Origin: Gammaproteobacteria bacterium
GTDB lineage: Bacteria > Pseudomonadota > Gammaproteobacteria > Xanthomonadales > Wenzhouxiangellaceae
Length of the DNA: 64,000 nt
Direction of reading: 5' to 3'
Assembly: GCA_021772975.1 (NCBI GenBank)
Contig: JAJFKY010000002.1
Span: 62,001 to 126,000 of the forward strand
How positions within the stretch are numbered: position 1 is the first letter of the stretch; the number at the start of each line of letters is the position of its first letter. Positions 39,030-53,684 of this stretch are shown piece after piece. The notes below the pieces were generated by a model. That model was given only the letters and a program-made list of their open reading frames with translations. It was not told where the DNA came from and did not search any database. The translations under genes and the position numbers were made by a program.

Positions 39030-40214
39030 GTGTGTGTTAAAAAGATGATCGCGCTGTACGTCGCTGTAGCAGTCATGCCGGTAACGGTGTTCGGCCAAAT
39101 CGTTGTCAAGATGGTGCCTGATGAATCGGTTTTAGCAACCGTCGTCAATCAGCAGAAGGGCTACTTCGATCTGATGCTGCAAACCATTGTCGTGGTCAAC
39201 CAGGGTTCCGCCCCGGCTGAGGTGACAGGCCTTAAGCTTGGTGTTGACAGTGATGTTGGCGAGAACGTCTCGGTGTCAATACCGATGACTGCTGTTGTTG
39301 CTCAGACGCAAGAGTTTGCCGGTATGCAGCAGCAGGGCCTGGGTGTCTTTCTGGCTGCACAGTTACTCAATTCCGCCGGACTCGGCGGCGCCGTACACGA
39401 GGACGCGCGGCTTGGCAACAGTGCAACCTTGGCACCGGGTGAAGCGCTCATTGCGACCTCACGGTATCTGGTGTCCCGCTCAGAGCCGGTTTCCGCAAGC
39501 ATCACTGTCGATTATCAAAATACGGATGGCGAAGCAGCGGTTGCGCAAACCATATTGCCGGTCAAGCTGCATGTGTCGCCATTTAACTATCGCGCACCGT
39601 TGCAAGGCGCCTGGTTGATGCGCGCCGCGCCGGCTGTTCACAGTCATCATCGTTTTATACCCAGCAATGAATTCGCGCTGGATTTCTTCAAGACCGGGCC
39701 CGATGGTGCCCTGGATAAAGCAGGTGATCGCTCGGCGACCGATGATTATGGCTGGGGTGAGCCGGTGCTCGCCGCTGAAGAGGGTGAAGTGGTGTTTGTT
39801 ATTAATGGGCAGGTGCAAACCCCGGAAAACCTGTCACGACGTGATGGCGAAAGCGTCGCCGCCGCACGCCAACGCATCACTGCCTATCAGATGCGCCGTT
39901 TCGCGGATGATTTCAGAGCCGCGGCGGCCGGTAACATGATTACGCTACGCCATGAAAAAAATGGACGCATTGAATATTCGTCATATGCCCACCTGAAAGA
40001 AGACAGTCTGAAGGTGCGTGTCGGCGACAAAGTTCATAAAGGGCAGCCAATTGCTGCTGTCGGTAACACCGGGGACTCAACACTGACGCACTTGCATTTT
40101 CAGTTGAATGCCGGTGCTGATGCATTCTATTCGCGCAGTCTGCCAGTGGATTTCGAAAATGATCGATCACTTTATATTGGTCAGGATCCCGGTCGTTTCA
40201 TGCTGTTCGAATAA
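39030..40214 (+). CDS. secreted M23 (LytM) metallopeptidase
   Basis: A 394-residue protein with a signal peptide (cleavage near VFGQ). The N-terminal 180 residues are beta-rich and unassigned. The M23 domain covers about 210-380: HRFIPSNEFALDFF (zinc ligands His and Asp), an ANYAVLAAEEGEV-like lysostaphin strand and TLTHLHFQL with the HxH pair. All zinc ligands look intact, so it may cut peptidoglycan crosslinks or another envelope peptide. GTG start at 39030 with GAGAGGAGAG 8 bases upstream. Follows the membrane AraC regulator on the same strand. Confidence 0.85.
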   Translation: MCVKKMIALYVAVAVMPVTVFGQIVVKMVPDESVLATVVNQQKGYFDLMLQTIVVVNQGSAPAEVTGLKLGVDSDVGENVSVSIPMTAVVAQTQEFAGMQQQGLGVFLAAQLLNSAGLGGAVHEDARLGNSATLAPGEALIATSRYLVSRSEPVSASITVDYQNTDGEAAVAQTILPVKLHVSPFNYRAPLQGAWLMRAAPAVHSHHRFIPSNEFALDFFKTGPDGALDKAGDRSATDDYGWGEPVLAAEEGEVVFVINGQVQTPENLSRRDGESVAAARQRITAYQMRRFADDFRAAAAGNMITLRHEKNGRIEYSSYAHLKEDSLKVRVGDKVHKGQPIAAVGNTGDSTLTHLHFQLNAGADAFYSRSLPVDFENDRSLYIGQDPGRFMLFE

Positions 40215-40525
40215 GCTCACTCATGACGTTATAAAGAATCGCACGATTAATAATGGCTGAGTGCAAAAAAGCGTAGCTGCTGAGGCATGCTTTCAGGTAG
40301 CGTGTTGATTCAAATATTCTTGAATTATGCCTGGCTAGGCTTTTCTCTATTGATTGTTAGCCCGGAGCTTAGGGAGTCTCTGGTTTAATCCGCCATGGCC
40401 GCGGCATATAAAATTTACCAGAGGCACCTTAGTTTCAGTGTTATAAAACTCAAACCTGTGCAAAGCGCAAGGCGCAAAGTGGCTTTGCGGTATACTATGC
40501 AGGCGAATAAAAAAAATTGGGCGGG
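40215..40525. other. gap with a candidate promoter
   Basis: No gene is supported in these 311 bases. A TATACT at 40491-40496, 30 bases before the ECF sigma gene, could be a -10 element on the plus strand; no matching -35 is clear. Confidence 0.3.
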
Positions 40526-41071
40526 ATGACAACAAGCATCAATCAGCTGGTTCGCCGTAGTAGAACCGATCACTCGGCTCAGGAGCGACTCTGGGCTTTG
40601 GTCATGCGCGAAATGCAACAACTGGCGCATGCCAGGCTTAAGCGCGAACGCGCCGGGCATGCGCTTGAAACCGATGCGCTGGTTAACGAGCTTTACCTGA
40701 AACTGGGTAATGTGACTTTGCAGGTTAACGATCGCGCACATCTTATGGCAGTGGCGGCTCGCCAGTTGCGATGTATTCTGGTTGATTATGCCCGCGCCAA
40801 TAATTGTGCCAAGCGAGGTGGCGATGCGTTGCATATTACGTTGCATACTATTGGCAAAGCATCCTCGGTGGAAAATGCAGATGTACTTGACTTGCATGAG
40901 GCTTTGCAACAACTGGAAAGCCATGATGAACGCACTGCATCGATGGTCGAACTGCACTACTTTGGCGGTTTGAGCTTTAAAGATATCGCCGCTGCACTTG
41001 AGGTTTCGATTGCCACGGTGACACGCAAAATGCGCCTGGGTAAGGCCTGGTTGCATAGCCGCATGAGCTGA
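40526..41071 (+). CDS. ECF-type sigma factor (kinase-associated group)
   Basis: A 181-residue sigma-70 family protein: region 2 has LKRERAGHALETDALVNELYLKL and RAHLMAVAARQLRCILVDYAR; region 4 has MVELHYFGGLSFKDIAAALEVS with IATVTRKMRLGKAWL as the helix-turn-helix. This is the ECF subfamily found next to Ser/Thr kinases instead of anti-sigma factors. Its TGA overlaps the kinase ATG (TGATG), so they are translationally coupled; activity may be set by phosphorylation rather than by sequestration. ATG 40526 is preferred over an upstream TTG at 40517. Confidence 0.88.
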   Translation: MTTSINQLVRRSRTDHSAQERLWALVMREMQQLAHARLKRERAGHALETDALVNELYLKLGNVTLQVNDRAHLMAVAARQLRCILVDYARANNCAKRGGDALHITLHTIGKASSVENADVLDLHEALQQLESHDERTASMVELHYFGGLSFKDIAAALEVSIATVTRKMRLGKAWLHSRMS

Positions 41072-43812
41072 TGGATGTTACCTGGAATCATCTAGAAAAG
41101 CTTTTTAACGAGCTGGTTGATGTCTCAAACCAGGAACAACAAAGACGCCTGCAGGAGATAGCAAAGCAAAACCCTTCGCTTGCCAATGAGTTACAAGTAT
41201 TGCTCGCCAGTGCAGACGAAACCATCGATTTCACATCAAACCAGGAAGCGGAACAAATACTGGAGACCAGTAATCTAGGCCCCGACAGCAAGCTCGGTCG
41301 TTATCGGCTGATTCGGCAACTGGGCCAGGGTGGCATGGGCGTGGTTTATCTGGCGCACCGGGAAGAAGATTTTACCCAGCAGGTTGCCATCAAACTTGGC
41401 AGGCTGATGTTAAACCCCGAATCTTCGGTTCAGTTTAGGCGCGAACGACAAATCCTTGCTGATCTGAGACATCCCAATATTGCCCGGTTACTCGATGGCG
41501 GTACTACAGAAACGGGTGCGCCATTTCTGGTAATGGAGTACGTCCAGGGAGAGGCAATAGATGTCCATTGCCGTACCCGGGAATTGGGTCTTGTCGAGGT
41601 ACTAAAACTCTTTAAAAAAGTGTGTTCCGGCGTTGCTTACGCTCATCAACACCTGGTCATTCATCGGGATATCAAGCCCGCCAACATCATGGTTGAGAAG
41701 GGTGGAGAACCGCGCCTGCTTGATTTTGGAATCGCCAAGATTGTGGCCCCGGACACCGCAGTCACATTGACGGTCGCGCAGGCAATAACGCCACAGTATG
41801 TATCTCCCGAACAGGTACAGGGTAAAAGCACAACCACCTTAACCGATGTGTACGCACTGGGTTTGTTGTTGTACGAGTTACTCACTGGCCGTCGCGCCCA
41901 GGATGTCAATTCAGTGGATCTCTCAGAACTGCAAAGAGTGGTTATCGAACGCGATCCCGAACCGCTCTCCAGGACATTGGCCTCCGCAGATAAATTAAGC
42001 GCAGCGGGCAGAGAGCTTCGACAGAAGTCCCGACAGTGGCAGCGTGACCTGCAAAATATTGTGCTGCGTGCACTGGCCAAAGCTCCGGCGCGGCGCTACC
42101 CGAGCGTATCAGCTCTGGCTGCAGATATTTCTCGTCTGATGGATGGCAACCCTGTAGAAGCAACCGGGGATTCACTGTTCTACCGGTTAGGCAAACTGAC
42201 GCGAAAATATCGTTACCGATTCGCGGCTTTATTAGTTGCCGCGGCATCCATAGTGGCATTGGTCATCGGGTTATCCTGGGCCGCCATTGTTGCCAATCAG
42301 GCACGCGACGATGCCCAGCGGCGGTTGGTACAGAGCCAGGACTTGGTTGGTTTTATGTTGGGCGATTTATGGCAACAACTGGAGCCCAAAGTGCGGCTGG
42401 ACATTCTGGATAGCGTGGGTGAAAAAGCCATGGCTTATTTCGCTTCGCTTGTCCCGGCGGATCAAAGCGATGAATCGCTGGCTAAAACCGCGTTGGCTCT
42501 GCGTCAGATTGGTGACGTGCGCATGTCCCAGGGGGAGTTTGCCCAGGCAGAGGCGGCATTTCAGCGCTCGATGGAATTGACTCAATCGTTGTATGAACGT
42601 GATCCCGATAATAACCAGCGGCTTTTTGGTCTGGGGCAGAGCCACTTTTGGGTGGGGTATGCCACATTGCGGCGTGGAGATAATACGGGGGCGCGAGAAC
42701 CGTTTACCCATTACCTTCAACTATCCAAAGAATTGGTTGCTCGCGAACCTGACAATCTGGACTGGTTGCTCGAACTATCCTATGCCCACAATAATTTGGG
42801 GACCTTGAATCTGCAGACTGGCCAGGCCTCAGCAGCGCGTGAGCGTTTCGAGCAGTCGTTGAGACTCAAACGAGACCTGGTGGCCGCGGAACCTAACAAC
42901 ATAGTGTGGCAAATGGAACTCGCCGATACACTGGGTTGGCTTGCCGACTCGGAGCATCGCCTCGGGCATCTTGAGCCAGCCTTGAATTATCGCAATGAGC
43001 GCCTTAGCCGAATCAAACAACTGGCCATTAGTCAATCGGATAACAAGCAAATCAACCAGGCCTTGGGATACGCAGCGCACACCCTGGCATTGCAGTTATT
43101 GACACTCGGTCGGGTTACCGATGCCCGCAATTTGTTTGAGTCGACAATCAAGCTTGCGGATCAACGCGCAGCTTTCGATCCTGAAAATCAAAAATGGCTG
43201 GAAGATGGTGCTCGTTCCCGGCTTGATATGACTAACCTGCTAACTTTGCAAGGCGAGTTCGAGTCAGCTCGCCGATATCTGGGTGAGGCACAGGCAATGA
43301 CTGAACGTCTATTGGCCAAGGGTGATCCCACTTTAGCCTGGCAGCGTGATCTGCATGGCAGGTCGGTTTATCAGCACGCCTTGCTGTTTTATCTAGAGTC
43401 GGAGTTGGCACAGGCCCATAGAAAAATTGAAATCGCTTTAATGCTGTTGAGGTCACTGGTTGAGGATCACGGTGACGATCTTATTCTCACGGAGTTGTAT
43501 CAGCGTTCGCTGTTGTTGGCCGGTGATATTGAACAAGCGTTGTGCGATCCAGATGCTGCGGTCCGGCAATGGCAGCAAGTGACTAACTCAGTTCCAGGTG
43601 CTCACGTGGAACCCGCATTTAGAACGCCGTTAAATCTGGCGTTGCATACCGTAGCGTGGAGGCGATTGGGGCAGATGGAAGCGGCTGATGCTGGTGCAAT
43701 GCAGCTGGGGTCCATGGGCTATGCAAGCCCCTGGTTCTTAATGTTCATAAATTTACAGTTTCAAAATAACGATTGCAATTTTCAAGAGAAAGTGCCGATC
43801 AATGATGACTGA
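41071..43812 (+). CDS. membrane Ser/Thr protein kinase with TPRs
   Basis: A 913-residue protein. Residues 1-70 are an N-terminal helical segment. The Hanks-type kinase covers about 78-360: LGQGGMGVVY (glycine loop), Lys108 in QVAIK, IHRDIKPANI with Asp200, LDFG Asp218 and VSPEQ. A TM lies at about 380-405, after which about 480 residues of TPR-like helices (FAQAEAAFQRSMELTQSLYE, AREPFTHYLQLSK) should lie outside the cytoplasm. All catalytic residues are present. Coupled to the ECF sigma gene upstream; a DUF2589 cluster follows. The likely role is a sensor kinase controlling the sigma factor. Confidence 0.92.
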   Translation: MDVTWNHLEKLFNELVDVSNQEQQRRLQEIAKQNPSLANELQVLLASADETIDFTSNQEAEQILETSNLGPDSKLGRYRLIRQLGQGGMGVVYLAHREEDFTQQVAIKLGRLMLNPESSVQFRRERQILADLRHPNIARLLDGGTTETGAPFLVMEYVQGEAIDVHCRTRELGLVEVLKLFKKVCSGVAYAHQHLVIHRDIKPANIMVEKGGEPRLLDFGIAKIVAPDTAVTLTVAQAITPQYVSPEQVQGKSTTTLTDVYALGLLLYELLTGRRAQDVNSVDLSELQRVVIERDPEPLSRTLASADKLSAAGRELRQKSRQWQRDLQNIVLRALAKAPARRYPSVSALAADISRLMDGNPVEATGDSLFYRLGKLTRKYRYRFAALLVAAASIVALVIGLSWAAIVANQARDDAQRRLVQSQDLVGFMLGDLWQQLEPKVRLDILDSVGEKAMAYFASLVPADQSDESLAKTALALRQIGDVRMSQGEFAQAEAAFQRSMELTQSLYERDPDNNQRLFGLGQSHFWVGYATLRRGDNTGAREPFTHYLQLSKELVAREPDNLDWLLELSYAHNNLGTLNLQTGQASAARERFEQSLRLKRDLVAAEPNNIVWQMELADTLGWLADSEHRLGHLEPALNYRNERLSRIKQLAISQSDNKQINQALGYAAHTLALQLLTLGRVTDARNLFESTIKLADQRAAFDPENQKWLEDGARSRLDMTNLLTLQGEFESARRYLGEAQAMTERLLAKGDPTLAWQRDLHGRSVYQHALLFYLESELAQAHRKIEIALMLLRSLVEDHGDDLILTELYQRSLLLAGDIEQALCDPDAAVRQWQQVTNSVPGAHVEPAFRTPLNLALHTVAWRRLGQMEAADAGAMQLGSMGYASPWFLMFINLQFQNNDCNFQEKVPINDD

Positions 43813-43895
43813 TCATGAACACCGAGTGTTTCCGCTAATTAGAGTATAGGCGTGTTCATTATGGATGCGCAACAAAACGGACCAAGGAGATAGCA

Positions 43896-44489
43896 ATGAC
43901 ACGCAAGCCACTTTATAAACAGCAGGTATTAACCTGTTGCTTTACCAATTTTTTCCGTAAAAAATCAGATTCCAATGATGTGTGTGTAACTGCAGAATGT
44001 GCTTTTTGGGATAGTAATGATGCAGATGTTTTTACGTTGGGTAGCGATGGCGGGTATGTGCTACCGGAGGTCACTCAAAAAAAGGGAAGGCAACCTGGTG
44101 ACTCTGAAAACGCTTTCACTCCACATGGTCAGCTGGTGCTCGTGTATTATATCTCTCCGCAGTGTGACTGGGCTTTCAGAAATGCCACCAATCAAGCCAA
44201 AGAGCTGACAAACTACCCCAATACACCGCTTATTTCGACGGAAAACAATTCCGACTTCATGGTGTTGGGATGGGGGGCTCCCCCTGCCAAGATAACGCCG
44301 CCGGTAAAGCCACCTCTATCGACGGACAAACTGCTGGTTATTTGGGATGCGAATAAAAATCACGGCCTGTTTAAATACAAACTTGCCCTGACAGACGAGA
44401 CTGTATCGGGGAGCAAGTACGTATGGGATCCGAGTCTGGATCCGCAAATCAAAAACGATGGCAGCGGCGGTGCGAATATGCGCCCGTAA
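43896..44489 (+). CDS. uncharacterised kinase-neighbour protein
   Basis: A 197-residue soluble protein with strong AAGGAG 8 bases before the ATG. No signal peptide or TM. It has an even spread of polar residues, Pro-rich centre (PPAKITPPVKPPLSTDKL) and closes with DPSLDPQIKNDGSGG. Four cysteines lie in the first 50 residues (TCCF, VCV, ECAF), and one more in QCDWAF. I do not recognise the family. The gene follows the kinase by 83 bases on the same strand in a region more AT-rich than its surroundings; it may be a substrate or output of the signalling module, which is inference. Confidence 0.6.
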   Translation: MTRKPLYKQQVLTCCFTNFFRKKSDSNDVCVTAECAFWDSNDADVFTLGSDGGYVLPEVTQKKGRQPGDSENAFTPHGQLVLVYYISPQCDWAFRNATNQAKELTNYPNTPLISTENNSDFMVLGWGAPPAKITPPVKPPLSTDKLLVIWDANKNHGLFKYKLALTDETVSGSKYVWDPSLDPQIKNDGSGGANMRP

Positions 44490-44503
44490 GGCTTGCTACA
44501 AGT

Positions 44504-44524
44504 ACCAATGCTGACTGCATTGGT
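44504..44524 (+). terminator. hairpin after the kinase-neighbour gene
   Basis: ACCAATGC at 44504-44511 and GCATTGGT at 44517-44524 pair perfectly (8 bp, 5-base loop TGACT), 14 bases after the stop of the preceding gene. No T tract follows, so factor-independent termination is unlikely to be strong. The rest of 44525-45070 shows no supportable gene. Confidence 0.4.
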
Positions 44525-45070
44525 CCCAGGCAGGTAGATAATGAAGCCATCCAGAGTCATTGCTAGGATCGTGACCCTAATGTAATACGCTCAGCATTTG
44601 GGTGATATCGGCTCTGTGTGTTGATGATCAGATTATTACCGTTGTGGAGAACCTGCTAAAACCCGCGCTAGGGTGTATCCGCGTTCATTCTGAACAAATT
44701 TATCTTGACCAGGGCACGAGCTAATCAGAGATAAAGCTGATTCGCTGTCACGCAAGCTTGCTTCAAAAATACTTTGATTTGAAATTAGTGAGCATGATTA
44801 GGTCGTTTTCCCGCTTTTATAGATGCAAGCGTGTTCATTTCGAACTCGCAAGTGTGAGGCAAGCGCAGTGGCTAAGAAGCGGCAGCTCTGGATATCCGCC
44901 ATGTTATTCACATCTGAAACTATGGGTTTCCAACCGTCGCCTTCATTGACAATAGGTAGGGGTAAGCAGTCTATGCATTATTTACTGCAAACTTAACTTG
45001 TTGTTATTAGCCATTTTGTAGCTTTTATAAACACGGGAATTTTTACAGCAATTAATTAGGAGAAATTATC

Positions 45071-45739
45071 ATGGCGCAACAACCAGCCCTGGTTTCCATG
45101 GCGGAACAGTTTAGTGGATTGCCAATGGAAGCCTTAATCGGCGCACCATTAATGGCGGCAGCAAAAGCTAACAGCGATATGGGTGCGGCACAAGTAGACT
45201 TTTTGCTAAAGACCTGCTTCGCCTATGACAAGGAGGCCGATACCTATACGCCTACAATGATAAAGATGATACTGAAACGTGGGGTATTAGTGCCAGTTGA
45301 TCCAACTGCGGATCCTCCGGTTGATCCGGAAATCAAGGTAGTCGAAACAGAATTTGATCTGCCAATATTGACGATCTTGCCTTTAAATTCATTAGCGGTT
45401 GATGAGGTAAATATCAGTTTCCATATGGAGGTTCAATCGAGCTTCAGTGAAACTGACAGTGACGAGCGTACAGAAGCGCTTGCAGCCGAGGCATCCTGGT
45501 CAGCCAAAGTTGGTTTGGGCCCATTTTCCGCGAAAGTGAAAGGAAGTGTCAGTTACAACAGCGAGAGTACTACATCGCACGAGACGTATTACGAGAAGAG
45601 CAATTCGGCTGAATATAACGTAACGGTGCATGCAGGGCAGTTGCCACTGCCTAAAGGTGTTAATACGATCATAGAAGCGTTTACTAAAGCGATCGAGCCT
45701 GTGACTATGCCAGTATTTGTTGGCGATTCCCCAGGATAA
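45071..45739 (+). CDS. DUF2589 family protein
   Basis: A 222-residue cytoplasmic protein. The N-terminus FSGLPMEALIGAPLMAAAKAN and the strand block FDLPILTILPLNSLAVDEVNISFHMEV are DUF2589 hallmarks; a second beta block ends SVSYNSESTTSHETYYEKS. The family is small, of unknown function, often in pairs and in clusters with signalling genes. The start has TTAGGAG 7 bases upstream. It lies in a run with a zinc-ribbon microprotein and a second DUF2589-like protein, 581 bases after the kinase-neighbour gene; both flanking gaps are AT-rich. Confidence 0.82.
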   Translation: MAQQPALVSMAEQFSGLPMEALIGAPLMAAAKANSDMGAAQVDFLLKTCFAYDKEADTYTPTMIKMILKRGVLVPVDPTADPPVDPEIKVVETEFDLPILTILPLNSLAVDEVNISFHMEVQSSFSETDSDERTEALAAEASWSAKVGLGPFSAKVKGSVSYNSESTTSHETYYEKSNSAEYNVTVHAGQLPLPKGVNTIIEAFTKAIEPVTMPVFVGDSPG

Positions 45740-45821
45740 CCAGGCATCAATCCGCCGCTTGCGATTCGCATTTTATATTAGTGATATACGAATCGCAGCG
45801 GCATTTAATCAGGAGAATAAT

Positions 45822-46004
45822 ATGAATATCAATATTACATGCCCTCACTGTCAATCACGGATTTATGTGGACCCCGCGGAATTGATCAGAGGCAGGCAAT
45901 TCTGCTGTTCAGGATGTGCCGTATCAGTATCGCTGGCTGTAGAAAGTCAAGCGATTGTTAAGCAGAGTATGCAGAAATTAGAGAGCATGCAACAGCCAGG
46001 CTGA
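45822..46004 (+). CDS. zinc-ribbon microprotein
   Basis: A 60-residue protein: MNINITCPHCQSRIYVDPAE and RQFCCSGCAVSV make a four-Cys ribbon (CxxC ... CxxC, plus an extra Cys), then a helical tail of 25 residues. AGGAG is 7 bases before the ATG at 45822. The ribbon resembles the N-terminal zinc ribbons of MJ0042/DUF35-like proteins that bind polypeptide or nucleic acid. Set between two DUF2589-type genes and surely cotranscribed with them; it could recruit or bridge the pair. Confidence 0.72.
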   Translation: MNINITCPHCQSRIYVDPAELIRGRQFCCSGCAVSVSLAVESQAIVKQSMQKLESMQQPG

Positions 46005-46074
46005 GTTGGCTAAGTATATTAATTGATATCTGGTTTTTGAGAAATAAATACATTGAAGCGGAGGAAATATCAGC

Positions 46075-46701
46075 ATGCTAACACTTAATCAATTGGTCGA
46101 AACCGTAAACAACGCAGCGTTGGTTGCGGCCGATACGGTTCGCGCAAAAAATTTGGCGATCATCGAAGATTTCTTTGAACTGGCAGATGGCAAAGATCCT
46201 TCAATAGCAGCTGCCATTGCCGCGCTGGATGCGGCAGCAGAAGATATGGATGACGGTGTCGAGTTGGATAACATCAGGAAAAGCCGTCAACGTCTTGTTG
46301 CCATGGACGGTGGCGATACTACACAAATGCCACCAGGTATCTCGCCGCTAATGCGGCCTAAGATGGTTGCTGTCGCGTATCCTAAAGAAAGCATCGATGG
46401 TCCAGGGTCACACATTGTTTATGTGCCATTGATTGCATTAACACCAATGTCTACGGCTTCGTTATCTAACCTGACTTTCAAAACCGATTTGGAACTTAGC
46501 CAAAGTGATTCCGGTGAGTTACTAATCGCCTTCCCAGTCGCTGAGCATAAAAGTATCAAACAAACAAACAATAATGATGAGCAAAGCCGGGCTGCGCATG
46601 CAAGTTTGGAAATTAGCCTGGATGCCAGTGCTACGCCTCAGGGCCTAAAGAAACTGATTGAAGGCTATGAGCGGTCATTGCGGGCGCAGATACCTGGATA
46701 G
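46075..46701 (+). CDS. second DUF2589-like protein
   Basis: A 208-residue protein. The N-terminal 85 residues are helical and acidic (EDFFELADGKDPSIAAAIAALDAA). The middle, HIVYVPLIALTPMSTASLSNLTFKTDLELS, parallels the DUF2589 strand pair of the gene two places upstream, as does LEISLDASATPQGLKKLIE near the end. Assignment to DUF2589 is by this resemblance and by context; it has an extra N-terminal helical domain. GAGGAA lies 9-10 bases before ATG 46075. With the first DUF2589 protein it may form a heteromer. Confidence 0.68.
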   Translation: MLTLNQLVETVNNAALVAADTVRAKNLAIIEDFFELADGKDPSIAAAIAALDAAAEDMDDGVELDNIRKSRQRLVAMDGGDTTQMPPGISPLMRPKMVAVAYPKESIDGPGSHIVYVPLIALTPMSTASLSNLTFKTDLELSQSDSGELLIAFPVAEHKSIKQTNNNDEQSRAAHASLEISLDASATPQGLKKLIEGYERSLRAQIPG

Positions 46702-46721
46702 TTCTTCTGCCAGGAGTGAGT

Positions 46722-46856
46722 ATGGACACCTACCATGTTTTTACAAGCACTGGTGGATGGCCCTACCAACAAACCCTCACCCTGCGGACCAGGGATTTAT
46801 TGACTAACATTCGGGCGGCAGTGAGATCCAATAAAAAAATAGTTGGGAAAAAATAA
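46722..46856 (+). CDS. possible 44-residue microprotein
   Basis: A short frame MDTYHVFTSTGG... that ends VRSNKKIVGKK, with a strong AGGAG 7 bases before ATG and only 20 bases after the DUF2589-like stop. It begins with TATGGACACC, which is also the left end of the hairpin repeat at 53687, and a right-end copy of that repeat lies 23 bases after its stop (46879-46902). It may therefore be part of a repeat-associated insertion rather than a conserved gene. Basic C-terminal tail. Confidence 0.35.
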   Translation: MDTYHVFTSTGGWPYQQTLTLRTRDLLTNIRAAVRSNKKIVGKK

Positions 46857-47328
46857 TGACATCCACGGTTCTGCCTGTATCAGAAGATGTGGGTGTCTCA
46901 ACGCTTTGCTGATCTAGCCAGTTAAATCAATGCAGGTTCGACGATCAGCTTACTGGCATAAAGGCTCTCTTGTTGAGGGCGATCAGCCTTAGCACTGCAT
47001 GTGCCTGTTCTGAACCTGTCAGCCGCCCTTGCAGCCAATACAGGGCTTGCGGCGGTTGTCCGCAAGGCTGGCAGGCAGGCACGGAATTTCCCTATCCGAC
47101 TCTTCACATTCTACTGTCAGTTGAGAAGCTAAACTGACTGTCGCCTAGCTCATAAAGGCGTTTATGTGATCAGTTGGTTACATACGGATTTTATCGTACG
47201 AGCAAGGCAACAGGGCGGTTAGCAGTGTCGCTGTAATTCACAATCCCAGTGATGGCTGTCGCATGTCTATAAAAAGGGCCGGAAGGTTTAACTGGTCGCA
47301 TAATTTCAGTAACAAAGAGGTGTTTTAT
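46857..47328. other. non-coding gap with isolated repeat copy
   Basis: No gene can be supported. 46879-46902 (ATCAGAAGATGTGGGTGTCT...) is the right half of the 58-bp hairpin repeat found at 53687 and 53832. The stretch 47000-47100 is rich in small GC palindromes. Confidence 0.5.
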
Positions 47329-47982: not shown

Positions 47983-50900
47983 ATGAAAAATACATTGGAA
48001 GTACGAGCAAAAAAATATTATTGGACACTGTCTGTTTGTTTATTGATGCTGATGGTTATGCTGGCATCTTCAGCACAGGCTATGCCTACTCACACACAAC
48101 TGGCAGGTAATTCACTGACGGATTACCCTTTTTTCGAATATGTCAAAGCATTTAACGCCAATGCCAGCGTTAGTGTTGCTATTGACCCCAGCCGCTTTCC
48201 CGGAATTGCCGGGCAAACCTGTGACATCTACGTGGTGACGGCCAAAGGCACCACCGGGTGGGCGACGAATAACACCCTCACCGACGTCACCACCGGCGGC
48301 GCCCAGACACAGACTTTCAGCGCGGCTAATATCCAGAGCAATACCTTTCTGGTGGCCGGGCCATCCGAGTTGAGCGCCAATGCCGGTCTCGGTCTGGGGG
48401 TAGGTTATGACGTGGTCCTGGACTGCGATCAGGACGGCCTGCTCGGTAATGCGGATTTTATTGACGGTCTGAAAAACGAAGCCGGCCTGTACGTCGTTCA
48501 CGACACCACGGCCGCAGGTCCACTGGCGGTCACCGAAACGCTGTACAGTATTAATGCAACGGTGGGCGCAAGCTTCGGTATTCCAGCCAACAAACTGGCC
48601 GAAGATTTATATTACCCGACGACTATCGCGACCATGGGGCAGTTGCCATTGATCATTATCAGCCGCGGCAACGGTCACAATTATCAATGGTATGACCACA
48701 TCGGTAATCATCTCGCCTCATATGGTTATATCGTGATGAGTCACGACAACAACACTGAACCGGGGGTGCAAACCGCGGCTACCACCACTCTGGGGCATAC
48801 CGATGCCTTTATCGATCAGGTGGCTGCCGGAGTGATTGCCGGCGGCGCACTGGTTGGCCATCTGGATACCAGCCGGATTACCTGGATCGGGCATAGTCGT
48901 GGCGCAGAGGGCGTGGCAATTGCTTATGACCGGCTATTTGATGGTACCCACACACCGGTGAATTTCGTGCGGGCCAATATCAAACTGATCAGCAGCATGC
49001 TGCCGACCGATTTTGAAAAAACCAATGTGGCTGATCCGCACGATGCCAATTATCATCTGTGGACCGCGTCAGGTGATTCTGATGTCAATGGTTCAGCTGG
49101 CTGTGATCTCTGCCAGACCTTTCATCTGCATGATCGAGCCACTGGTAATCGTCAGTCCACCACTATCCAGGGCACCGGACATGGCTGGTTTCACGACAAC
49201 AATTCAGCCGCTGCCGCATTTTTCGGCCCGTGCTCGATTGGTCCCACCAACAGCCTGACGCATCAGATTCAGCTGGGTCACTTTTTGCCGCTGGTCAAAC
49301 GCTATATCGAGGACAATATTCCGTCCATTGATTTTTTAACCCGGCAGTATGAAAGTTTCCGCCCGATCGGTGTGCCGACCGGCAATGCCTGCATCGTAGT
49401 CAGCCATGAATACCGCGACGGGACCGCCAGCGGTAATTTCATTATTGACGATTATCAGACCCAAACCGGCACGGGAACCAGCAGCTCAGGTGCCGCGGTA
49501 ACCTTCAATGTGCAAAATCTGACCGAGGGCCGGCTGGACGACAACAACAGCAGTTTCAGCTGGACGACTTCGGACCCGTTCAATGGTGCGACCCAGGGTG
49601 GTCCTGCCGACACCACCCGCGGGGTAGTGTTCGACTGGACCAATCAAGACCGCTTTTATGAGTGGGAAGTGGCTGTCGGGCAGCGCAACTTTGCCAGCCG
49701 ACTGCTGTTTAACGACAACCTGTATCTATCCCTGCGCGGTGCCCAGGGCACCCAGCATCCCAATACCCTGGCGGTGCTGGGTGATCTGACTTTCACGCTG
49801 ACCCTGCGCGATAATACCGGCACCAGCAGTTCCATCAATATCGGTGCGTTCGGTGGTGGCCTGGAACAACCCTATGCGCGCAGCGGCGGCTGGCACAATG
49901 AGATGGAAACCATCCGCATCCGGGTTACCGACTTTCTCAATAATGGCTCGGGTCTGAATCTGGGCAATATCGTTGCGGTGCGGCTAAATGTGGGTCCTTC
50001 CTGGGGTTCCGGTCGGGGTCGCATTGTGGTGGACGAGGTGATGTTGACCAATGACCGCACCGTTTATGATGCATCCAACAATGGCGACCCGCATATCAGG
50101 ACCGTGGACGGCGTTCACTATGATTTCCATAGTGCGGGTGAGTTTGTGGTCTTGCGTGCTGATGATGACATGCAGATCCAGACGCGCCAGTCACCGGTGT
50201 CCACAGCGCCGCCCATTGGCAATGCACATACCGGACTGGCAAGCTGTGTCAGCATTAACACCGCGGTGGCCGCCCGGGTGGGCGCACATCGCGTCAGCTA
50301 CCAGCCCAACCTGAACGGTGAACCCGATCCGGATGGACTGCAGTTGCGCATAGACGGTGTGCTGACCAGTCTGCCTGCCAACGGCATTGATCTCGGACTG
50401 AGCGGGCGGGTGGCGGAAGCCCCGGCCGGCGACGGCATCCAGATAGACTTCGCTGACGGAACTACCATGGTGGCACTGTCCAGGTGGTGGAGCTCGCAAA
50501 GCAGGTGGTATTTGAACGTCAGTGTCTTCAATACCCCGGCCGAGCAGGGCGTGATGGGAATTATCCCGGCTGGTAACTGGTTGCCGGCACTGCCCGATGG
50601 GACTTTACTGGGACCTCGTCCGGGTCCATTGTCGCAACGCTACAGTGATTTAAATAAAACTTTTGCCGATGCCTGGCGGGTAACCTCTGCAACCAGTCTG
50701 TTTGATTACGCCCCGGGTACTTCGACCAAAACCTATACCAACCGGGGCTGGCCACCCGAACAACCACCCTGCGAGATTCCGGAAAGCCCGCCGACGGAAC
50801 CGCTGGACAGCGATGTTGCCAAGGAGTTTTGCCGGGTGATCTTGGACGAGCAAAACAATGCCGATTGTGTGTTTGATGTCATGCTGACCGGCGAACCGGG

Positions 50901-51285
50901 TTTTGCCAAGCTGTATGAGCAGACCCAGCGAATTGAGGCTGGTCTGACAAAAACCATCTTGAGTGGTAACCGTAATCCGTCACGGCCGGGCGAAAAGGTC
51001 ACCTTCACGGCGAAGGTGTTCAGGGCCGCTCTGGATAAAACCATCAAACCCGGAGAGGTTGATCAGGATGCCCCCAAAGGTGCAATTCAGTTTGTTCTGG
51101 ATGGTGACTGGATAGGTGATCCGATTGAGCTGGATGAAAACGGGCAGGCCAGCTGGATAACCTCGCGGCTTACAGCGGGCGGTCACAAAGTGAGCGCTAT
51201 TTATATTCCCGCTGAAAGAGATGAGGTGTTTCTTACCAGTCAAAGCGCTGTTCAGATACATAATGTGACCCGCGAGGGCAGATAG
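47983..51285 (+). CDS. secreted alpha/beta hydrolase fused to VWD and Ig-like domains
   Basis: An 1100-residue exported protein. Signal peptide to about 33 (SAQA). Residues about 190-440 are a hydrolase of chlorophyllase/PAF-acetylhydrolase type: LPLIIISRGNGHNYQWYD, TWIGHSRGAEG with Ser305 and HGWFHDN His. A jelly-roll-like segment follows. Residues about 700-860 form a von Willebrand factor D domain (NNGDPHIRTVDGVHYDFHS, FVVLRADDDMQIQTRQ). Residues about 985-1095 are an Ig-like repeat (GAIQFVLDGDWIGDPIEL). No partner genes; a strong hairpin lies 47 bases after the stop. It is a probable surface esterase or lipase. Confidence 0.82.
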   Translation: MKNTLEVRAKKYYWTLSVCLLMLMVMLASSAQAMPTHTQLAGNSLTDYPFFEYVKAFNANASVSVAIDPSRFPGIAGQTCDIYVVTAKGTTGWATNNTLTDVTTGGAQTQTFSAANIQSNTFLVAGPSELSANAGLGLGVGYDVVLDCDQDGLLGNADFIDGLKNEAGLYVVHDTTAAGPLAVTETLYSINATVGASFGIPANKLAEDLYYPTTIATMGQLPLIIISRGNGHNYQWYDHIGNHLASYGYIVMSHDNNTEPGVQTAATTTLGHTDAFIDQVAAGVIAGGALVGHLDTSRITWIGHSRGAEGVAIAYDRLFDGTHTPVNFVRANIKLISSMLPTDFEKTNVADPHDANYHLWTASGDSDVNGSAGCDLCQTFHLHDRATGNRQSTTIQGTGHGWFHDNNSAAAAFFGPCSIGPTNSLTHQIQLGHFLPLVKRYIEDNIPSIDFLTRQYESFRPIGVPTGNACIVVSHEYRDGTASGNFIIDDYQTQTGTGTSSSGAAVTFNVQNLTEGRLDDNNSSFSWTTSDPFNGATQGGPADTTRGVVFDWTNQDRFYEWEVAVGQRNFASRLLFNDNLYLSLRGAQGTQHPNTLAVLGDLTFTLTLRDNTGTSSSINIGAFGGGLEQPYARSGGWHNEMETIRIRVTDFLNNGSGLNLGNIVAVRLNVGPSWGSGRGRIVVDEVMLTNDRTVYDASNNGDPHIRTVDGVHYDFHSAGEFVVLRADDDMQIQTRQSPVSTAPPIGNAHTGLASCVSINTAVAARVGAHRVSYQPNLNGEPDPDGLQLRIDGVLTSLPANGIDLGLSGRVAEAPAGDGIQIDFADGTTMVALSRWWSSQSRWYLNVSVFNTPAEQGVMGIIPAGNWLPALPDGTLLGPRPGPLSQRYSDLNKTFADAWRVTSATSLFDYAPGTSTKTYTNRGWPPEQPPCEIPESPPTEPLDSDVAKEFCRVILDEQNNADCVFDVMLTGEPGFAKLYEQTQRIEAGLTKTILSGNRNPSRPGEKVTFTAKVFRAALDKTIKPGEVDQDAPKGAIQFVLDGDWIGDPIELDENGQASWITSRLTAGGHKVSAIYIPAERDEVFLTSQSAVQIHNVTREGR

Positions 51286-51332
51286 CAGGACAGCTAACCT
51301 GGTTATTATCCGACCAGGTGGATAATTGATAT

Positions 51333-51366
51333 GAACCGGGTATGGCGTTGTCGCCATACCCGGTTC
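51333..51366. terminator. strong bidirectional hairpin terminator
   Basis: A perfect 15-bp stem: GAACCGGGTATGGCG (51333-51347), loop TTGT, CGCCATACCCGGTTC (51352-51366). It lies between the convergent VWD-hydrolase and PHA depolymerase genes. Only scattered Ts follow, but the long stem fits termination from both sides. Confidence 0.75.
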
Positions 51367-51498
51367 GCTTATTATTGGAAGAGCTGATTTTTAGCCGCGC
51401 TGTGTCTGTGATCGGTTGGCGCTGCCGCCATACTGGCAGTAAAAAATGTCAGATAAGCAGAATATGCTGAGGATATTCCGCCGGTTTCTACCAGGCGG

Positions 51499-53424
51499 TC
51501 AGGGGCACTCACCCCTGTTCCAGACCACACCATCGATACTGTATAGCGTATTGACGCCCCAGGTTGAGCCTGGCATGGGGTCATTGCTGCCATTGGCGAA
51601 ATAGTCCGGGCTGAAGAAAGCGCCGGTACTGTAGGCCCGGTTGCTGGTCTTGTGGTAATAATTGACGGTGGTTTGTTGTTCGCACGTGCCACCCCCATCA
51701 CCGCCGCCTCCCGGATCGCCGCCATCACCACTGCAGGCGACGTTTGGACCTGAACACGAGGCGTCGTCGTCCTGCCAGCGGCACTGAGTTGTGGATAAGG
51801 CGATTTCGCTCAGGGTAAAAGGCAGGCTGGCATATTCCAGGTAGCAGTCGGCGTAATTGGTATAAGCCAGCCGTCCGGCATTGATATGTTCACTCAGCGT
51901 TGCGGTCTGTCCGCTATCAAGACTGAAAAATACCGATTCACTGGTGCTCAGACCACTGAGGTCAGTGGCCACCAAAGTGGCTTCATTGACGCCACCCGGC
52001 AGACCACAGCGTGCGGCGGTAAAAGATGTGCCGCTGATGGTTGCGGTTACGCTGCCATTGCTGAAGGTGGCAATAACGGTATCAAGGTCCTGGTTCTGAT
52101 CAATAACCTCGCCGGTTACCGTCACGCACTGTCCGGCCACGGTGGCAGCGATATTGCTGAATGCCGGGGCTGCTGGCGGCGGCGGCGGACCAATGCGCAC
52201 GGTTGCGGTCACCGGGCTGCTGGTTGAGCCGCTGTCGTCAGTTGCGCTCAGGGTTACGCTATACAGATTATCCGCCAGGCTTGTGCTGAGACCGCTGTAA
52301 GTGCTGCCTGCGACAGTCAGCATCACTGTAGCGACCGGCACGCCAGTATCAGCTTCACTGATCGCGGCGCTTGCTTCGGCGACACTGCCATCGGTATCGG
52401 TGACCGTTGCGGTAATCGCAATGCGGCCGGCATCTTCCGCCAGCAGCAGATTGCTGATCTCAGGCGGTGTATTGCGGTTGACGCGCTGATTATAGGCGGC
52501 AAAAAAACCACCTAAATACGCGGCGTAGTTGATGCTGGCCGCGGATATAAAACTACCTGATGCACCGGCGCCGCCCGACCATGCGTGATCTACACCGTTA
52601 AACCAGAGCCTGGAAACCCGGCCGTTCTGCCATAGGGTTTCCTGCGCGGTCCGTCCGGCCCCATCGGTAACGGTAACGGTGCCGGGCAGCTCGCTCACCC
52701 CATACAAGGCGGCCATGCCAACGGAGTTTTGGGTGTTGTAGCATTGATTGACGGTGGTATCCGCATCGCCCTGCGCGATGGAGGCAATCTGAGTAGCGAA
52801 ATATTGCCGATAGGCGCTGCCTGCATAGCTGTCACAGCGGGCTGCAACATCAGCTGATTCGCATGGGCCCAATGCGCCGTTGGAACTGGTGCCGATACTT
52901 GGGCCGGCGCTGACAGCCACGCCAGCGAATACATCGGGCGCCAGACAGGCCGTGGTATTGGCAAAGCTGGCGCCTGAAGACAGCCCGGAGATGTAGACCT
53001 GATCAGGGTCAATGCCGCGGCCAGGGTCGCTGCTCAGAGTATTGGCCAGGTTGATCAGACGTTGATAGTCATCACTGGAGCGGGATTTTGTACCGGTCCA
53101 GTAAGACCAGCAACTGAAACCGGCCTTATTGACGGCATCGGGTACCGCAATAACCATTCCGTAGCTGTCGGCCGCGTCTTCCAGGTTGGCGGTATCATAA
53201 TTGCTGATGGGCTGAACACAGCCATGCAGAACCAGCAGCAATGATCGTTGTTGCGCTGGTCCGATGGGTGAGAATGATGTCGGGGTGTAGATGTTGACGT
53301 TATTAAAACCGCCCAGGCTGATGCCTCGTTGCCAGCTGCCCGCGCCAGCCAAAGCCGGCAGCAGCAAAGCAATCATCATCACCAGTGCACGAAACTTCGC
53401 AGGGGTATTGCAAGAACCAGTCAT
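51499..53424 (-). CDS. secreted short-chain PHA depolymerase, type 1 catalytic domain
   Basis: A 641-residue extracellular enzyme (signal peptide to about 28, ALAGA). The catalytic domain, about 30-325, has LLLVLHGCVQPISNY (oxyanion region), the lipase box GLSSGAS with Ser149 and VDHAWSGG for the His. This is the extracellular catalytic domain type 1 of short-chain-length polyhydroxyalkanoate depolymerases. Two Ig-like/fibronectin-type domains (about 335-530) and a C-terminal Cys-containing region with a Gly/Asp linker follow, probably for binding the granule surface. It lets the cell use environmental PHB. GAGGGA lies 8 bases before ATG 53424. Confidence 0.9.
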   Translation of the reverse strand: MTGSCNTPAKFRALVMMIALLLPALAGAGSWQRGISLGGFNNVNIYTPTSFSPIGPAQQRSLLLVLHGCVQPISNYDTANLEDAADSYGMVIAVPDAVNKAGFSCWSYWTGTKSRSSDDYQRLINLANTLSSDPGRGIDPDQVYISGLSSGASFANTTACLAPDVFAGVAVSAGPSIGTSSNGALGPCESADVAARCDSYAGSAYRQYFATQIASIAQGDADTTVNQCYNTQNSVGMAALYGVSELPGTVTVTDGAGRTAQETLWQNGRVSRLWFNGVDHAWSGGAGASGSFISAASINYAAYLGGFFAAYNQRVNRNTPPEISNLLLAEDAGRIAITATVTDTDGSVAEASAAISEADTGVPVATVMLTVAGSTYSGLSTSLADNLYSVTLSATDDSGSTSSPVTATVRIGPPPPPAAPAFSNIAATVAGQCVTVTGEVIDQNQDLDTVIATFSNGSVTATISGTSFTAARCGLPGGVNEATLVATDLSGLSTSESVFFSLDSGQTATLSEHINAGRLAYTNYADCYLEYASLPFTLSEIALSTTQCRWQDDDASCSGPNVACSGDGGDPGGGGDGGGTCEQQTTVNYYHKTSNRAYSTGAFFSPDYFANGSNDPMPGSTWGVNTLYSIDGVVWNRGECP

Positions 53425-53472
53425 ATCGTATCCCTCGCCAATGAAGACTGAGCAGCCTAAACGCTGCCAGTG

Positions 53473-53684
53473 AGTGTCTGCGCAGGCCGTGCTCAAGGCT
53501 GGTGCTATATCGGGCCAGGCGCGCAGTTGTTGCGTTAATTCAATTGCTTAGCCGTTTCGATTAACCCTAGGATATTTGCCCGGACGCGTCTATTGTCCAT
53601 ATGGCCATAACCCGGGCAGGCTGGCAGGGCAGCTTTAGCAAGCAGCTGTGCTGCTATGCGGTTTAGCTCCGCTGGCGGCATCGG
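53473..53684. repeat. left copy of a 212-bp direct repeat
   Basis: This stretch (AGTGTCTGCGCAGGCC... to ...GGCGGCATCGG) recurs at 54951-55161 in the same orientation, with shared blocks such as AGGCGCGCAGTTGTTGCGTT and GGCAGGGCAGCTTTAGCAAG and about 85 percent identity by eye. The two copies bracket the unknown gene at 54082 and the hairpin repeats. Confidence 0.8.

What the first reader, a model, noticed from the sequence alone, without database searches (positions are those of the whole stretch)
40526..46856. ECF sigma-kinase module followed by a DUF2589/zinc-ribbon cassette
A sigma factor and a TPR-bearing Ser/Thr kinase overlap by one base; then come an unknown protein, DUF2589, a four-Cys ribbon microprotein, a DUF2589-like protein and perhaps a 44-residue peptide. 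All are on one strand, with strong SDs and an AT-rich composition. DUF2589 has no known function. The set could be a signal output system controlled by phosphorylation.
Basis: partly seen in the sequence, partly recalled or inferred. Interest (0 to 1): 0.65.

Follow-up and report, generated by a model that had tools for sequence, protein, structure and literature searches.

The report
Conserved DUF2589–zinc-ribbon cassette beside sigma–kinase pair
Two members of an almost unstudied bacterial protein family and a tiny zinc-binding protein form a gene set that recurs across many bacterial phyla, often next to cell-wall-cutting enzymes and sometimes next to toxin-like genes, which hints at a new export or delivery module; here it happens to lie behind an ordinary sigma-factor/kinase signalling pair.

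Summary
The genes are real. An ECF sigma factor and a one-TM, TPR-bearing Ser/Thr kinase overlap by one base. An orphan 197-aa protein (X) follows. After a 581-bp gap come DUF2589 "A", a four-Cys ribbon "R" and DUF2589 "B". The 44-aa peptide has only a Shine-Dalgarno for it.

The kinase link is local, not general. The five strong sigma factors of this family in the genome all have a kinase beside them or one gene away; only one lies by DUF2589. A kinase lies within 3 kb of 2 of 80 related cassettes and 0 of 34 others. One Acidobacteriota contig repeats sigma–kinase–ORF–B–A. The window sigma carries Asp where six aligned relatives carry the phospho-Thr.

The new point is the cassette. A, B and R occur together in 72 of 80 loci (mostly AARB or BAR). 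A second subtype lacks R, has an 86-aa protein and often a GH108 endolysin and a phage-type holin. Wall hydrolases of unrelated families lie beside part of the cassettes; toxin-like ORFs beside a few.

Best reading: A, B (paralogues) and R form a soluble assembly that handles a variable cargo and, in some hosts, leaves by a type-10-secretion-like route. That function is inferred; the window shows no adjacent hydrolase or holin.

The parts
40526..41071 (+). ECF sigma factor (TIGR02999 / PF07638); ETDA motif in region 2.2, Asp at the phospho-Thr position
41071..43812 (+). Ser/Thr kinase (Hanks type), one TM segment, C-terminal TPR region; 1-base overlap with the sigma
43896..44489 (+). X: 197-aa orphan ORF, no family match, no relative in 368 other genomes of the class; 83 bp after the kinase
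44490..45070 (+). 581-bp gap, AT-rich (43% GC), likely holds the promoter of the A-R-B cassette (inferred); carries one of two GCGTGTTCATT copies that flank X
45071..45739 (+). DUF2589 A-type protein, 222 aa, no hydrophobic N-terminal segment
45822..46004 (+). R: 60-aa four-Cys zinc-ribbon protein, conserved third member of the cassette
46075..46701 (+). DUF2589 B-type protein, 208 aa, conserved C-terminus (..RAQIPG), paralogue of A
46722..46856 (+). possible 44-aa ORF with an SD; no relative found; doubtful gene

Best explanation
The locus is two modules side by side. Module 1 is an ECF43-like receptor: a one-TM TPR kinase and its sigma factor (pairing shown; that they sense an envelope or outside signal is taken from published relatives). 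Module 2 is a mobile, widely conserved cassette A–R–B. A and B are paralogous proteins; A, B and R show no hydrophobic segment that would be a signal peptide or TM helix (shown by hydropathy only). They most likely assemble together with the zinc ribbon R (inferred from co-occurrence). In part of the relatives the cassette sits beside peptidoglycan hydrolases of unrelated families, in one subtype with a phage-type holin, and now and then beside toxin-like ORFs (shown). So A/B/R most likely form a cytosolic carrier, chaperone or particle for a variable cargo (X in the window) that leaves the cell through locally opened wall, in the manner of a type 10 secretion system (inferred). In the window the sigma–kinase pair probably takes the place of the regulators seen elsewhere (LuxR-type response regulators, and LysR-like proteins judged by eye) and would switch the cassette on (inferred).
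For: A, B and R together in 72 of 80 loci; median spacing 35 bp, CxxC..CxxC in 70 of 74 R hits; A and B homologous (hhalign 97.5%, E 6.6e-12). Among 121 operonic neighbours chosen by rule, GH25 matches 6 and is the most frequent family, PG_binding_1 5, M15 4, plus CHAP 2 (seen in the overlapping set); 95 distal genes show none of these among the families listed. GH108 endolysin and holin both beside 15 of 34 loci fetched from the genome search; 17 of 17 holins scanned match phrog_2359. GH19 (L069, L073), GH46 (this genome's third DUF2589 copy, L048), and Amidase_3 plus Tle1-like phospholipase (L071) elsewhere. Toxin-like neighbours: ADP-ribosylating toxin (L086, PDB 9qe9, E 5e-5), CdtB family (L112, E 8.6e-6 but far below the curated cut-off), eCIS core (1 of 95; assigned to L085 by reading its sequence). 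T10SS core = holin + signal-less hydrolase (PMC13284979, passages).
Against: No hydrolase or holin adjoins the window cassette; of eight hydrolase HMMs only M23 matches in the window, a protein with an N-terminal hydrophobic segment 4.9 kb from A. Only 16 of 80 R-type loci have a matched hydrolase within 3 kb, with HMMs built partly from those same proteins, and none of the 80 has the holin. If three wall enzymes were hidden in the unlisted part of the control, the excess is no longer significant (12 of 121 against 3 of 95, p 0.06). Some GH25 neighbours have a hydrophobic segment near the N-terminus, unlike T10SS hydrolases (L107, L131). X has no relative and no toxin signature. Toxin-like neighbours are few and were not set against a background. 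B-A pairs also lie in phage-like contigs beside DNA-metabolism genes, which the export model does not explain. No structural relative was found in PDB.
Confidence: 0.38

Rival explanations
1. One reading: sigma, kinase, X and the DUF2589 set form one dedicated phospho-signalling output system, with DUF2589/R as effectors or kinase substrates.
For: Same strand and contiguous. L115 (Acidobacteriota) repeats ECF–STK–ORF–B–A and its A is the nearest outgroup of the window's 8-row clade, though with weak support (80/55).
Against: An STK is near 2 of 80 and 0 of 34 cassettes. The 5 strong TIGR02999 sigmas here go with a kinase whatever lies next to them. 581-bp gap before A; GC shift between kinase and cassette. 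Asp at the phospho-site.
Confidence: 0.2
2. A/B/R are a general intracellular assembly (stress, storage or chaperone proteins, or a phage-derived scaffold); the wall hydrolases and toxin-like genes are neighbours only because all of these collect in mobile islands.
For: Patchy, cross-phylum distribution; B-A pairs in 23 IMG/VR loci, of which L172, on a 100-kb contig, has UvsX-like, SbcD-like, exonuclease and clamp genes around the pair; BFVD match to a viral protein (E 2.7e-4); the A and B models match no solved fold.
Against: The neighbouring hydrolases come from many unrelated families and often lie within a few hundred bases on the same strand, while 95 distal genes of the same loci show no such family among those listed.
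Confidence: 0.3
3. A/B/R are an immunity or self-protection set for cells that release toxins or undergo programmed lysis, or a phage-defence set.
For: Adjacent toxin-like ORFs and lytic enzymes in some loci.
Against: A, B and R are conserved while the neighbours change, unlike specific immunity proteins (inference). PADLOC was not searched.
Confidence: 0.1

Closest known systems
ECF43 sigma / Hanks kinase pairs: EcfK–PknS (Xanthomonas citri), EcfP–PknT (Vibrio parahaemolyticus)
   Same: Sigma gene beside a transmembrane Ser/Thr kinase; the sigma's region 2.2 motif aligns with the QTTA/STTA motif of these sigmas.
   Different: ETDA with Asp at the T51-equivalent instead of Thr; in X. citri the pair drives a T6SS, here it lies before a DUF2589 cassette.
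Type 10 secretion systems (ChiWXYZ of Serratia; TtsA muramidase/typhoid toxin and ChiH/ChiP of Salmonella)
   Same: In the other DUF2589 subtype a GH108-type endolysin without an N-terminal hydrophobic segment and a holin lie within about 1.2 kb of the DUF2589 pair; a few cassettes neighbour ADP-ribosyltransferase-like or CdtB-like ORFs (that TtsA is itself of the GH108 kind is recalled, not from a call).
   Different: The full-text search for DUF2589 returned no T10SS paper; the window locus has no adjacent hydrolase or holin; A/B have no recognisable signal peptide.
PF11655 DUF2589 (e.g. AF0414-AF0417 of Archaeoglobus fulgidus, up on lactate, PMC3949148, one passage)
   Same: A and B are members above the curated cut-off.
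   Different: The split into A and B partners, the ribbon or the 86-aa third member and the wall-hydrolase neighbourhood were not found in print (one paper, one passing mention; open-access library only).

Membership tests
DUF2589 (PF11655) | profile score above the curated cut-off of 23 bits | tested here: met
   A 97.4 bits, B 42.8 bits
phospho-activated ECF43 sigma | ECF sigma of the family next to a Hanks-type kinase | tested here: met
   TIGR02999 150 bits; kinase overlaps by 1 base
phospho-activated ECF43 sigma | Thr at the EcfK T51 / EcfP position (88% of ECF43 members per PMC13147305) | tested here: not met
   window ETDA has Asp; the other four in the genome and L099, L115 have Thr
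phospho-activated ECF43 sigma | phosphorylatable or acidic residue at the linker site (EcfK T106) | not tested
   the linker is too variable to place
phospho-activated ECF43 sigma | assignment to group ECF43 by the published classifier | not testable with these tools
   no ECF-group models at hand
Type 10 secretion system (window locus) | signal-less peptidoglycan hydrolase beside the cassette | tested here: not met
   eight hydrolase HMMs over the whole window match only the M23 protein, which has an N-terminal hydrophobic segment and lies 4.9 kb away; not every hydrolase family was tested, and the rest of the genome was not searched
Type 10 secretion system (window locus) | holin gene | tested here: inconclusive
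   the phrog_2359-type HMM finds none in the window; other holin types and the rest of the genome were not tested
Type 10 secretion system (DUF2589 relatives with the 86-aa protein) | signal-less hydrolase plus holin in one cluster | tested here: met
   both beside 15 of 34 loci, 14 of the 15 from one genus; GH108 without hydrophobic segment (one sequence checked); holin phrog_2359 in 17 of 17 scanned
Type 10 secretion system (DUF2589 relatives with the 86-aa protein) | cargo shown to be exported by them | not testable with these tools
   needs secretion assays

The most novel reading that the evidence does not exclude
A–R–B (and its A–B–86-aa sister type) is a previously undescribed, horizontally spread protein particle or carrier that collects a variable toxin-like cargo in the cytosol and is released through a holin/peptidoglycan-hydrolase exit: a delivery module that different bacteria wire to different switches, here an ECF sigma and a receptor kinase.
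Probability: 0.25. Interest if true: 0.85.

Novelty: new variant of a known kind. Interest (0 to 1): 0.57.

Why it matters
DUF2589 has been a name without a function: one passing mention in the open papers searched. Showing that it comes as an A/B pair with a fixed third member, spread over many phyla and in part of them beside wall-cutting enzymes, turns it into a testable system. If the export reading holds, it adds a cargo-handling layer to type-10-like secretion and a new place to look for toxins. For the window, it separates an ordinary sigma–kinase switch from the interesting cassette behind it.

Tried and rejected
Phosphorylation-controlled DUF2589 system as a general rule: rejected on the neighbourhood counts.

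Structure as a guide to function: A modelled poorly (pLDDT 68.9), B better (84.7). Foldseek against PDB gave nothing at E <= 0.001 for either. VIA-align gave best Z 2.4 (A) and 5.8 over 67 residues (B, rmsd 10.2), within the range the tool calls common. BFVD gave one unnamed viral match for B at E 2.7e-4. PDB sequence searches with the A and B profiles gave 0 matches and one at E 0.16.

X: no relative in 368 other genomes of the class, one chance-level PDB match at E 2.2, none among the ORFs of the loci held; similarity to the equivalent ORF of L115 is not significant (BLAST E 0.32).

Promoter/terminator scan of 40150-47300: no excess over shuffles (6 against 8.6 and 8 against 6.8). An 11-mer GCGTGTTCATT flanks X twice and occurs 4 times in the genome; too weak to call a promoter.

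Phage origin: with an A protein of the other subtype (L037) as query, 1 of 50,697 phage records and 4 of 72,556 plasmid records match; 23 loci in IMG/VR, of which L162 also has the GH108 and 86-aa genes and may be bacterial. Left open.

Biases to tell. The neighbour scan was done twice. The first used 94 neighbours plus X picked by hand: some second upstream genes and near-duplicates were left out, and I had already seen some GH25 sequences. The second used every gene of at least 60 aa among the first two same-strand neighbours on each side (gaps under 300 bp) and inside the cassettes: 121 genes from 61 of the 80 loci; the other 19 had none. Each Pfam tally lists only the first 25 families (of 66, 101 and 151), so CHAP is read and single matches in the control may be hidden. 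The hydrolase HMMs were partly built from proteins near cassettes. The R and A HMMs were built partly from the same loci. The patterns and query favour window-like A proteins, and only 80 of 297 confirmed relatives were kept. Gene starts in the loci are my own calls. Signal peptides and TM helices were judged by hydropathy alone. The tree used 64 of the 74 rows of A6 (viral rows left out) and has long branches.
Full report
What is there. Sigma 40526-41071 scores 150 bits against TIGR02999 (cut-off 126). The kinase 41071-43812 starts on the last base of the sigma stop codon; it has a Hanks domain, one TM segment and TPRs. X (43896-44489) starts 83 bp after the kinase and matches no family. After 581 bp without a convincing gene come A (45071-45739), R (45822-46004) and B (46075-46701). 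A and B both pass the DUF2589 cut-off. The 44-aa ORF after B has an SD but no relatives among the loci held. X and the cassette are 46-48% GC, the sigma–kinase pair 52%, the window 54%, so the modules may have different histories.

The sigma–kinase pair is ordinary. One search lists 11 matches to TIGR02999 in the genome; five are strong (four above the cut-off and one just below, 124.8 against 126) and six are weak (about 33 bits or less). Each of the five has a kinase next to it or, in one case, one gene away. Such pairs are the published ECF43 kind, in which the kinase phosphorylates a Thr in region 2.2 (PMC13147305: abstract and passages; PMC8999054: passages). An alignment of the five plus two from Acidobacteriota contigs shows Thr at that site in six and Asp in the window sigma (ETDA). 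The window sigma may therefore be active without that phosphorylation; this is an inference from an alignment, and PMC13147305 reports a second site in the linker that I did not test.

DUF2589 without kinases. PF11655 matched 3 places in this genome, 21 of 299 genomes of the order and 9 of 398 of the phylum, this genome counted in each. I fetched 34 loci from these searches: 26 from the order, including this genome's third copy, and 8 from other orders or classes. A scan of GTDB contigs found 297 relatives of A, of which the best 80 were kept; they include Bacteroidota, Pseudomonadota, Acidobacteriota, Myxococcota, Spirochaetota and Cyanobacteriota. A kinase lies within 3 kb of 2 of these 80 (L098, L115), with two further out (L099, L107); among the 34 there are 0. 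L115, an Acidobacteriota contig, has sigma–kinase–146-aa ORF–B–A in the window's order, so the arrangement is not unique. In the tree L115 is the next row outside the window's 8-row clade (97/87), which otherwise holds Halomonas, two Kangiella, Sphingomonas, Polyangium, Nannocystis and a Saprospiraceae bin; the join to L115 is weakly supported (80/55).

The conserved cassette. Profiles of A, B and R find all three in 72 of the 80 loci. Counting only the strand of A and genes near it, nine loci lack one or more; five of these (L096, L115, L120, L150, L157) end within about 300 bp of the last cassette gene, and four (L122, L154, L158, L160) do not. Common orders are A-A-R-B (37), B-A-R (21) and A-R-B (7); median spacing is 35 bp; 70 of 74 R hits keep CxxC...CxxC. 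A and B are paralogues (hhalign 97.5%, E 6.6e-12). In the 34 other loci R was not found, and an 86-aa protein lies beside the pair in 27. A third type, seen in L047, L048 (this genome's third copy), L072 and L075, has a 213-228-aa partner instead.

The neighbours. In many of the 34, the operon runs LuxR-type response regulator, GH108 endolysin, B, A, 86-aa, a B-like 146-aa protein, small membrane proteins (clusters; Pfam on one locus, L081). One of these is a holin: 17 of 17 scanned match phrog_2359. GH108 and holin are both present in 15 of 34; 14 of these 15 come from one genus and are not independent. Other loci have GH19-type endolysins (L069, L073), GH46 with a PG-binding domain (L048), or Amidase_3 followed by a Tle1-like phospholipase (L071). 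For the 80 loci I scanned, by rule, 121 operonic neighbours from 61 loci against Pfam: GH25 (6) is the most frequent family, then response regulator (5), PG_binding_1 (5), M15 (4) and LuxR-type GerE (4). CHAP (2) is seen in the earlier hand-picked set. In 95 random genes more than 4 kb from the cassettes none of the wall families appears among the 25 families shown and no listed family matches more than two members; single matches could be hidden among the 126 families not shown. Taking GH25, M15 and CHAP as 12 of 121 against 0 of 95, Fisher p is 0.0014; with one, two or three hidden in the control it is 0.007, 0.025 or 0.06. By my own HMMs 16 of 80 loci have a wall hydrolase within 3 kb and none further out, with the bias that the HMMs came from such neighbours. 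A few ORFs resemble toxins: L086 (a relative lies in L089) matches an ADP-ribosylating toxin structure (9qe9, E 5e-5); L112 matches the CdtB family weakly (25 bits against a cut-off of 189, E 8.6e-6) and Exo_endo_phos just under its cut-off; an eCIS-core match I assign to L085 by reading its sequence. These are few and not measured against a background.

How it may work. [quoted passage not shown] The 86-aa subtype of DUF2589 operons often has that pair. Hence the reading that A/B(/R) are soluble proteins that hold or form the cargo of such an exit. In the window no such pair was found, so the window is not filed as a T10SS; X occupies the variable-neighbour slot, and the sigma–kinase pair is the likely switch. 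Shown: gene content, conservation, paralogy, absence of hydrophobic segments in A, B, R and X. Inferred: complex formation, cargo, export, regulation by this sigma. B-A pairs in phage-like contigs beside DNA-metabolism genes are unexplained by this reading.

Verdict. The DUF2589–ribbon cassette deserves attention in its own right; the kinase link is probably a local wiring.

Noticed in passing
G000:C1:138779-139348 (L048:9738-10391, minus strand): The same genome has a third DUF2589 gene of another subtype, beside a GH46-family protein with a peptidoglycan-binding domain.
   Followed up: partly
window 43850-43860 and 44829-44839: The 11-mer GCGTGTTCATT lies just upstream of X and in the gap before A; only 4 exact copies in the whole genome. 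Possibly a shared regulatory site.
   Followed up: partly
window 39030-40214: M23 peptidase-domain protein with an N-terminal hydrophobic segment, just upstream of the sigma; its relation to the cassette is unknown.
   Followed up: no
L172:7503-8639, L173:6706-7842: A DUF2589 B-A pair without ribbon in large IMG/VR contigs; in L172 between SbcD-like, exonuclease and clamp genes, so phages may carry this family too.
   Followed up: partly
L071:9343-13817: A–86-aa–B, then Amidase_3 and a T6SS Tle1-like phospholipase on the same strand.
   Followed up: no
loci L087 to L161: Other regulators near cassettes: response regulators (cluster 2, 12 loci, some with histidine-kinase-like genes) and LysR-like proteins (cluster 4, 9 loci, some of them far from the cassette); names by eye except Response_reg 5 and GerE 4 of 121.
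   Followed up: partly
window 47983-53496: Long secreted-looking proteins next door: a 1100-aa protein (47983-51285, +) and a 665-aa protein with an esterase-like N-terminal part (51499-53496, -); read by eye only.
   Followed up: no
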